DNA of 64,000 bases from an uncultured Lentisphaerota bacterium (lineage in GTDB: Bacteria > Verrucomicrobiota > Kiritimatiellia > CAIQIC01). Each line of letters opens with the position of its first letter. Positions within the stretch are counted from its first letter, which is position 1. A program made the translations under genes and the position numbers. This document shows, one piece after another, positions 54,455-55,175 of the stretch. Below the pieces are notes generated by a model. It worked only from the letters and a program-made list of their open reading frames with translations. It did not search any database and was not told the origin of the DNA. The stretch covers positions 1 to 64,000 of the forward strand of contig CAISWQ010000033.1 of NCBI GenBank assembly GCA_903889245.1. Direction: 5' to 3'.

Positions 54455-54486
54455 ATAATCGCACACCTCAAGAGGTGTGCGATTAT
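54455..54486. promoter_or_regulatory. inverted repeat 1 of 3 (candidate operator, downstream copy)
   Basis: ataatCGCACACCTC-AA-GAGGTGTGCGattat, 15-bp perfect arms. Confidence 0.75.
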
Positions 54487-54497
54487 TTGAAATTATG

Positions 54498-55127
54498 TTA
54501 ATGATTTAGCAGTTTCTGCAAAACTATTGTCAGTAATCTTTCACGGCAGGTTGGCCCCCGATGCGCAACCACCCGCCAGCTTTCCGGCAAGGTCCCCTGG
54601 TAGGTCACCACCCCGCGCCGCCGCAATTTATCCAGATGCCGGTAGACAGCGTCGGGCGACATGCCGATCCGCTCCGTCAACGCCGTAACAGTCGTGTCCG
54701 TCCCGGTCGCCAGTTGACGCAGGAGCAATAGGCGTCGCAGATGGGTATAGGTGGTGAAGAGTTTTACCAGCGCCTCCAGTACGGCCTCGTTTGAGGCGTT
54801 CGCCTTGTCGCACACCTCAAGAGGTGTGCGATTAACTTCTTTTTTGCTCATGATATCGCCGAGAAGGGCGTGGAGGTCCCGCAGAAAACGATTGGCGGTG
54901 ACCTTCGATCCGGCTGGCCGGTAAAAGACCTGCCGGCCTTGTGGCACAGCCTCAATGAAATGAAAGGTGCAAAGCAACTTGAGTTGCTGTGAGGTGGCCG
55001 CAGGTGGCTGGGCGATTTGGGCGGCCAGTTCGCGCACAGCCAGCAAGGGTCGCGTATGGATGGCATGCAGGAGGCGGAGGCGCGTTCGATTGGCGAGCGC
55101 TCGGCAAGCAGTGACCACGAGATCCAT
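54498..55127 (-). CDS. tandem winged-helix ArsR-like transcriptional regulator
   Basis: MDLVVTACRALANRTRLRLLHAI...VRELAAQIAQPPAATSQQLKLL plus second wHTH VTALTERIGMSPDAVYRHLDKLRRRGVV; RBS AAAGGAAG before ATG at 55127. Confidence 0.82.
   Translation of the reverse strand: MDLVVTACRALANRTRLRLLHAIHTRPLLAVRELAAQIAQPPAATSQQLKLLCTFHFIEAVPQGRQVFYRPAGSKVTANRFLRDLHALLGDIMSKKEVNRTPLEVCDKANASNEAVLEALVKLFTTYTHLRRLLLLRQLATGTDTTVTALTERIGMSPDAVYRHLDKLRRRGVVTYQGTLPESWRVVAHRGPTCRERLLTIVLQKLLNH
54808..54831. promoter_or_regulatory. inverted repeat 2 of 3, inside the regulator CDS
   Basis: tCGCACACCTCAAGAGGTGTGCGa. Confidence 0.75.
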
Positions 55128-55151
55128 AAGTACTTCCTTTCCGTACATCAA

Positions 55152-55175
55152 TCGCACACCTCAAGAGGTGTGCGA
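55152..55175. promoter_or_regulatory. inverted repeat 3 of 3, in the divergent promoter region
   Basis: tCGCACACCTCAAGAGGTGTGCGa, about 26 nt upstream of the regulator start. Confidence 0.78.

What the first reader, a model, noticed from the sequence alone, without database searches (positions are those of the whole stretch)
54455..55175. Three identical 22-bp inverted repeats, about 33 helical turns apart, at the 3' end, middle and 5' of a tandem-wHTH regulator
CGCACACCTC-AA-GAGGTGTGCG occurs at 54460, 54809 and 55153 and I noticed no other copy in the window. Spacings are 349 and 344 bp, both close to 33 turns at 10.5 bp/turn. One copy is just upstream of the regulator start in the divergent promoter region, one is inside its coding sequence (NRTPLEVCD between the two wHTH domains), one lies just past its stop. 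This fits an autoregulated looping repressor with auxiliary operators, analogous in logic to lac O1/O2/O3.
Basis: partly seen in the sequence, partly recalled or inferred. Interest (0 to 1): 0.82.

Follow-up and report, generated by a model that had tools for sequence, protein, structure and literature searches.

The report
Self-flanking palindromes of tandem-wHTH genes
The three identical palindromes are one case of an apparently undescribed bacterial gene family in which each DNA-binding protein gene carries its own private palindromic word at both ends (here also in its middle), with more copies scattered between other genes, so protein and DNA word seem to evolve together.

Summary
In detail: three identical 22-bp palindromes sit upstream of, inside and just past a 209-aa tandem winged-helix (ArsR-type) gene. 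It is not a one-off. Seven of the eight further matches in the own genome are tandem paralogs, and each has its own different palindrome, mostly two or three copies in the same places. Across 81 tandem loci of the bacterial class, 44 carry at least two copies of one locus-private palindrome, against 7 of 275 control windows. The words also occur singly elsewhere (58 matches to one degenerate pattern in the own genome, 0 for the reversed control). These solo copies are almost all intergenic and not promoter-biased, and 60 of 75 best match a word of a regulator in their own genome. Recognition-helix residues covary with half-site bases (Asp159 with G in 7/7 loci; Pro42 with C in 6/6). So the protein very probably binds its own palindrome, most likely autorepressing; this is inferred, not shown. 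The helical-phase looping idea is not supported: spacings across the family show no 10.5-bp periodicity. The logic resembles REP/RAYT pairs, with a non-catalytic wHTH protein in place of the transposase. I found no description of it in the open-access papers searched.

The parts
54498..55127 (-). tandem-wHTH ArsR-type protein, 209 aa, start ATG 55127 (an upstream GTG at 55157 is also in frame; homologs align from MDL)
   Evidence: Pfam HTH_5 twice, NCBIfam HTH_metalloreg above cut-off, AlphaFold2 mean pLDDT 90.1 with two wHTH units
55150..55177 (.). 5' palindrome (core 55153-55174), centre 36 bp before the start codon
54808..54831 (.). middle palindrome, inside the coding sequence; encodes linker residues NRTPLEVCD (99-107)
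   Evidence: linker is the low-confidence stretch of the model
54455..54486 (.). 3' palindrome (core 54460-54481), centre 27 bp past the end of the stop codon
54966..55004 (-). recognition helix of wHTH1 (residues 42-54); residue 42 covaries with half-site base 9 (inner half)
54618..54656 (-). recognition helix of wHTH2 (residues 158-170); residue 159 covaries with half-site base 3 (outer half)

Best explanation
The gene encodes a tandem winged-helix DNA-binding protein of a fast-diverging family, and the three palindromes are its own binding sites. The likely mode is a dimer on a roughly 26-bp palindrome: in each half-site wHTH1 reads the inner bases and wHTH2 the outer bases. The site about 36 bp before the start codon most likely gives autorepression. 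The site past the stop, a recurrent feature of the family, and the linker site, seen only in this genus, bracket the gene with bound protein, probably as road-blocks or insulators rather than as a phased loop. The same word is also scattered at a few to about twenty intergenic places, like a low-copy REP family, and changes together with the protein. Shown by computation: the architecture, the privacy of the words, co-occurrence, covariation, dispersal and matching within a genome. Inferred: binding, dimer geometry, autorepression, and any role of the dispersed sites.
For: Seven of the eight other matches to the protein in the own genome are tandem paralogs, and each carries its own palindromic word, two or three copies at 5', linker and/or 3'. 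44 of 81 tandem loci have at least two copies of one word vs 7 of 275 control windows. One degenerate form of the word occurs in 21 of 31 genomes with the tandem protein vs 5 of 66 without (p=1.5e-9), reversed control essentially 0. Covariation: Asp159 with G at half-site base 3 in 7/7 loci, found in two distant subfamilies; Pro42 with C at base 9 in 6/6; residues 42 and 159 are the first and second residues of the modelled recognition helices. The central 4 bp are self-complementary in 80 of 106 sites and sense-strand G-T pairs do not exceed A-C pairs (8 vs 12), which points to a symmetric DNA site rather than an RNA hairpin. 60 of 75 solo copies best match a word of their own genome's regulators (permutation mean 31, 0 of 1000 reach 60). 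Solo positions shared between species carry different words, in most cases that of the resident regulator.
Against: No binding or expression data. No sigma-70-like promoter was found at the 5' site. Solo copies are not enriched in divergent/promoter gaps (12/80 vs 34/163) and are mildly enriched in convergent gaps (23/80 vs 24/163, p=0.015), which is unlike a classical regulon. Some loci lack the 5' or linker copy. Covariation counts are not corrected on a tree.
Confidence: 0.72

Rival explanations
1. Lac-type looping repressor: the 5' site is the main operator and the linker and 3' sites are helically phased auxiliary operators that close loops of about 33 turns.
For: Three identical sites with near-equal spacing; several paralogs keep three sites about 345 bp apart.
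Against: Spacings over the family are not periodic at 10-11 bp; outside this genus the second site sits about 600 bp away past the stop; some members lack the 5' or the linker site. Spacing similarity follows from homologous coding lengths.
Confidence: 0.2
2. REP-like repeat system: the palindromes are repetitive extragenic elements, some selfish, and the wHTH protein is their cognate partner (mobiliser's helper or binder) as RAYT is for REPs; regulation of the gene is secondary.
For: Gene flanked by its own word, word scattered in intergenic space, not promoter-biased, faster divergence of the gene than of its neighbours at an orthologous locus (52% vs 82-83%): the same set of traits reported for RAYTs (PMC2817692).
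Against: No catalytic domain; copy numbers are low (roughly 1-18 solo copies per word in the patterns searched); several solo positions are orthologous between species rather than newly inserted.
Confidence: 0.35
3. Mobile cassette whose ends are the palindromes.
For: The G000 copies share no systematic neighbouring genes and sit at different places from those of sister species.
Against: No transposase or recombinase in the unit; two loci are orthologous between G002 and G003 with conserved neighbours; palindromes also occur alone and inside the coding sequence; no empty site could be shown.
Confidence: 0.12
4. RNA-level elements: terminators or mRNA-stabilising hairpins at both ends of the transcript.
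For: Perfect stems; some solo copies lie close to stop codons.
Against: Centres are self-complementary with no loop bias, no G-T excess on the sense strand, terminator-like matches no more than in shuffles (1 vs 1.1), no Rfam family reaches its gathering score, and bases covary with the protein's recognition helices.
Confidence: 0.05
5. Ordinary local regulator of the divergent membrane-protein genes 55367-56763.
For: Shared intergenic region with one site.
Against: The only relative of the larger membrane protein in 7 related genomes searched has no wHTH gene or palindrome next to it; paralogs have unrelated neighbours.
Confidence: 0.15

Closest known systems
REP elements with RAYT (REP-associated tyrosine transposase)
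   Same: Gene flanked by two copies of its own palindromic word; each family member has its own word; word dispersed in intergenic DNA; gene diverges faster than its neighbours while words stay palindromic (PMC2817692)
   Different: Protein is a tandem ArsR-type wHTH without HUH/Y1 catalytic domain; no GTAG-type head; low copy number; an extra copy inside the coding sequence. Y1_Tnp genes exist in these genomes, but the 8 examined are not flanked by these words
ArsR/SmtB family repressors (SmtB, CzrA, NolR, HlyU)
   Same: Each half has the ArsR wHTH fold; palindromic operators
   Different: Two wHTH units in one chain, longer palindrome, sites bracketing the gene, many orthogonal paralogs per genome
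lac repressor O1/O2/O3
   Same: Three operators around and inside a coding sequence
   Different: No helical phasing across the family; sites bracket the regulator itself
parS/ParB-, Noc- or MatP-type dispersed-site binders (own knowledge, not tested)
   Same: One protein, short palindromes scattered over the chromosome, some inside its own gene or operon
   Different: Many parallel systems with different words in one genome

Membership tests
REP/RAYT | gene flanked on both sides by copies of its cognate palindrome | tested here: met
REP/RAYT | palindrome dispersed in intergenic regions of the genome | tested here: met
   copy number low
REP/RAYT | associated protein is a Y1/HUH tyrosine transposase (PF01797) | tested here: not met
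   Pfam scan gives only wHTH-type families as real matches; Y1_Tnp genes lie elsewhere, without these palindromes in the 8 loci checked
ArsR/SmtB metalloregulator | ArsR-type wHTH domain | tested here: met
   PF01022 in both halves; NF033788 above cut-off; PDB neighbours SmtB, CzrA, NolR
ArsR/SmtB metalloregulator | conserved metal-ligand cysteines/histidines (e.g. alpha3 CxC) | tested here: inconclusive
   no cysteine in residues 31-41, just before the wHTH1 recognition helix, in the window's protein; other ligand sites not tested
Looping repressor (lac type) | helically phased operators | tested here: not met
Looping repressor (lac type) | tetramer or other bridging oligomer; loop in vitro | not testable with these tools
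   only a monomer model was made
Autoregulated repressor | operator at own promoter that lowers own transcription | tested here: inconclusive
   site about 36 bp before the start in most members; no promoter consensus found; no expression data
Intrinsic terminator / RNA hairpin | loop, U tract, G-U tolerance | tested here: not met

The most novel reading that the evidence does not exclude
A new kind of repeat/partner system: a non-enzymatic tandem-wHTH protein family, one to about ten orthogonal members per genome, each maintaining its own dispersed palindromic word and its own gene bracketed by it, with protein and all copies of the word changing in concert under a Red-Queen-like drive (gene conversion, selfish spread or selection for orthogonality).
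Probability: 0.35. Interest if true: 0.88.

Novelty: new variant of a known kind. Interest (0 to 1): 0.72.

Why it matters
It offers a natural series of paralogous and orthologous repressor-site pairs with readable specificity residues (159 and 42), so the rewiring of protein-DNA recognition can be followed in sequence and tested directly. It also shows REP/RAYT-like genome behaviour with a protein that has no transposase domain, which bears on the open question of what maintains palindromic repeats in bacteria.

Tried and rejected
Helical phasing: random. Regulation of the neighbouring membrane-protein genes as the general function: no conserved neighbours. Cassette at the SNF2 neighbour in sister species: absent, but downstream genes differ, so no clean empty site; same for the flank of the G002/G003 locus in G000. 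RNA hairpin/terminator: rejected. Y1 transposase as the real partner of the palindromes: its loci lack them. wHTH relics at solo sites: none convincing by tblastn. Named-genome scan with the single protein found no relative, and the alignment had no stretch conserved enough to use. Literature searches returned REP/RAYT and ArsR papers but nothing describing this family.

Full report
Observation. The 22-mer is present exactly three times at the stated coordinates, with none expected in shuffled sequence. The regulator (54498-55127, minus strand) has two ArsR-type winged-helix domains. An AlphaFold2 model (mean pLDDT 90.1, pTM 0.85) shows two wHTH units joined by a poorly ordered linker around residues 91-112, which is where the middle palindrome is translated as NRTPLEVCD. 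In the whole genome the exact 22-mer occurs six times, three of them elsewhere.

Paralogs carry private words. Eight further loci in the same genome match the protein; one of them (L025) is a single-wHTH ArsR and has no such palindromes, the other seven are tandem. Each tandem paralog carries its own palindromic word, usually at the same places: AAATTCGCACACCT-NNNN-AGGTGTGCGAATTT three times at C42 (one copy with one changed base), AATCGCACACTTG-NN-CAAGTGTGCGATT three times at C33:71922, ATTGCAGAGTTGTACAACTCTGCAAT three times at C46, ATCCCGGACTTT-TA/AT-AAAGTCCGGGAT three times at C91, and two copies each at C29, C125 and C93. These paralogs have no systematically shared neighbouring genes (the only repeats are members of common, mutually distant gene families).

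The family. Searching 97 genomes of the same class finds many tandem proteins, often several per genome; homologs with source names come from Verrucomicrobia, Planctomycetes and Armatimonadetes genomes. I oriented 81 tandem loci and looked for palindromes sharing one word. 44 had two or more copies near the gene, against 7 of 275 control windows of equal length from the flanks. The usual positions are a centre about 36 bp before the start and about 10-36 bp past the stop; only the genus of the window adds the linker copy, so the two-site bracket looks like the more widespread form. Many other members have a single palindrome before the start, or two there.

Do the proteins read these words? 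Three lines say yes. (a) Genomes with the tandem protein are the ones with the commonest word type, CACACTTNNNNAAGTGTG: 21 of 31 against 5 of 66, p=1.5e-9, the reversed pattern being found once in all. (b) Recognition-helix residues covary with half-site bases. Asp159, the second residue of the wHTH2 recognition helix, goes with G at half-site base 3 in 7 of 7 loci, four in the window's clade and three in a distant subfamily. Pro42, the first residue of the wHTH1 recognition helix, goes with C at base 9 in 6 of 6. On average the wHTH2 helix associates with outer bases 3-4 and the wHTH1 helix with inner bases. These counts are not tree-corrected, but the subfamily split partly controls for descent. 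(c) Solo copies elsewhere match the resident regulators: 60 of 75 solo sites in three congeneric genomes are nearest to a word of a tandem protein of the same genome (permutation mean 31, p<0.001).

Solo copies. CACACYTNNNNARGTGTG occurs 58 times in the own genome, 12 in G002 and 22 in G003, reversed control 0; these counts include the copies at the wHTH genes. GGACTTNNNNAAGTCC occurs 9, 5 and 7 times, reversed control 1, 0 and 0. Of 88 solo sites placed relative to predicted genes, 80 fall in gaps between genes, 6 at the edge of the stretch and 2 inside genes. Convergent gaps are mildly over-represented (23/80 vs 24/163, p=0.015) and divergent gaps are not (12/80 vs 34/163). This is not the placement of a classical promoter regulon; it resembles REP elements. 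Gene calls came from a simple codon-usage script and are approximate, least reliable in G047.

Concerted change. At an orthologous locus in G002 and G003 the flanking proteins are 82-83% identical but the tandem proteins only 52%, with dN 0.38 against about 0.10 (dS also raised, 0.97 against 0.35-0.39, so replacement or conversion is possible), and the words differ; a second shared locus (L057/L059) shows a weaker contrast. In G002 all seven exact CACACCT-type sites have the GTAC centre of its regulator; in G003 four solo sites have the TGC/CGC-type centre of its own regulator, two exact ones keep GTAC and a third has GTAC with one mismatch. Solo positions shared between species carry different words: the site after an orthologous regulator-like gene is the window regulator's word in G000 and another word in G002/G003; a site in the gap 3' of an orthologous gene (L163/L190) likewise; and a site inside a long orthologous gene (G000 C97, G003 C5), read in frame as KQMPTLSKVWASE or KQNSTPREVWNSK, sits at the same codon position with different words. 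The G000 member of that last pair matches no current G000 word closely (5 mismatches), and the G003 member of the first pair carries the G002 word.

Not looping by phase. Spacings of 36 site pairs show no periodicity at 10.0-11.0 bp, nor do the 14 inner spacings. The spacing similarity reflects homologous coding length.

DNA rather than RNA. The central 4 bp are self-complementary in 80 of 106 sites, and sense-strand G-T mismatches do not exceed A-C mismatches (8 vs 12); terminator-like matches equal the shuffled expectation; no Rfam family reaches its gathering score.

Comparison with the known. The set of traits - gene flanked by its own palindrome, dispersed copies, one word per family member, gene evolving faster than its neighbours while words remain palindromic - is what was reported for RAYT genes and REPs (PMC2817692). 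The partner here has no transposase domain. Y1_Tnp genes exist in these genomes but the eight loci examined are not flanked by these words. By sequence and fold each half is ArsR-like. I found no description of the tandem-wHTH/palindrome pairing in the open-access papers searched, which does not exclude one in subscription journals.

Verdict. A real, non-random and recurrent feature. Binding of the word by its own protein is well supported computationally; autorepression is likely; phased looping is not supported; the role of the dispersed copies is open. Limits: draft genomes without names, approximate gene calls, only two word types counted genome-wide, covariation not tree-corrected, no experiment.

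Noticed in passing
window 56780-56930, 59856-60000; also L117, L118, L157, L172: A second, more abundant palindromic repeat (TTTTCCAAGCCTTGGAAAA type) is scattered through the genome, and seems to be read in frame inside genes, e.g. DFPSLGTTVARFFQALEKELA in the ORF at 59856-60989.
   Followed up: no
L174:2993 (G000 C97) and L124:1500 (G003 C5): A palindrome of this family lies in frame inside a long orthologous gene at the same codon position in two species, with a different word in each.
   Followed up: partly
G000 C33:71922-72545 (L019/L107): A second tandem-wHTH paralog with its own triple palindrome lies about 17 kb from the window's copy on the same contig, just outside the window.
   Followed up: yes
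L154 (C11:1614/1802) and L155 (C18:47325/47513): Two solo pairs of the L019 word at two unrelated loci have the identical 188-bp spacing, both between convergent genes.
   Followed up: no
G040 and G075: These two genomes carry 4 and 5 copies of CACACTTNNNNAAGTGTG but no tandem-wHTH match at E<=1e-10; a lost or unassembled partner is possible.
   Followed up: no
G000 C48:1553, G003 C21:47186, G003 C33:33012: GGACTTCGTGAAGTCC occurs in two genomes and may simply be a conserved coding stretch rather than a member of the family.
   Followed up: no
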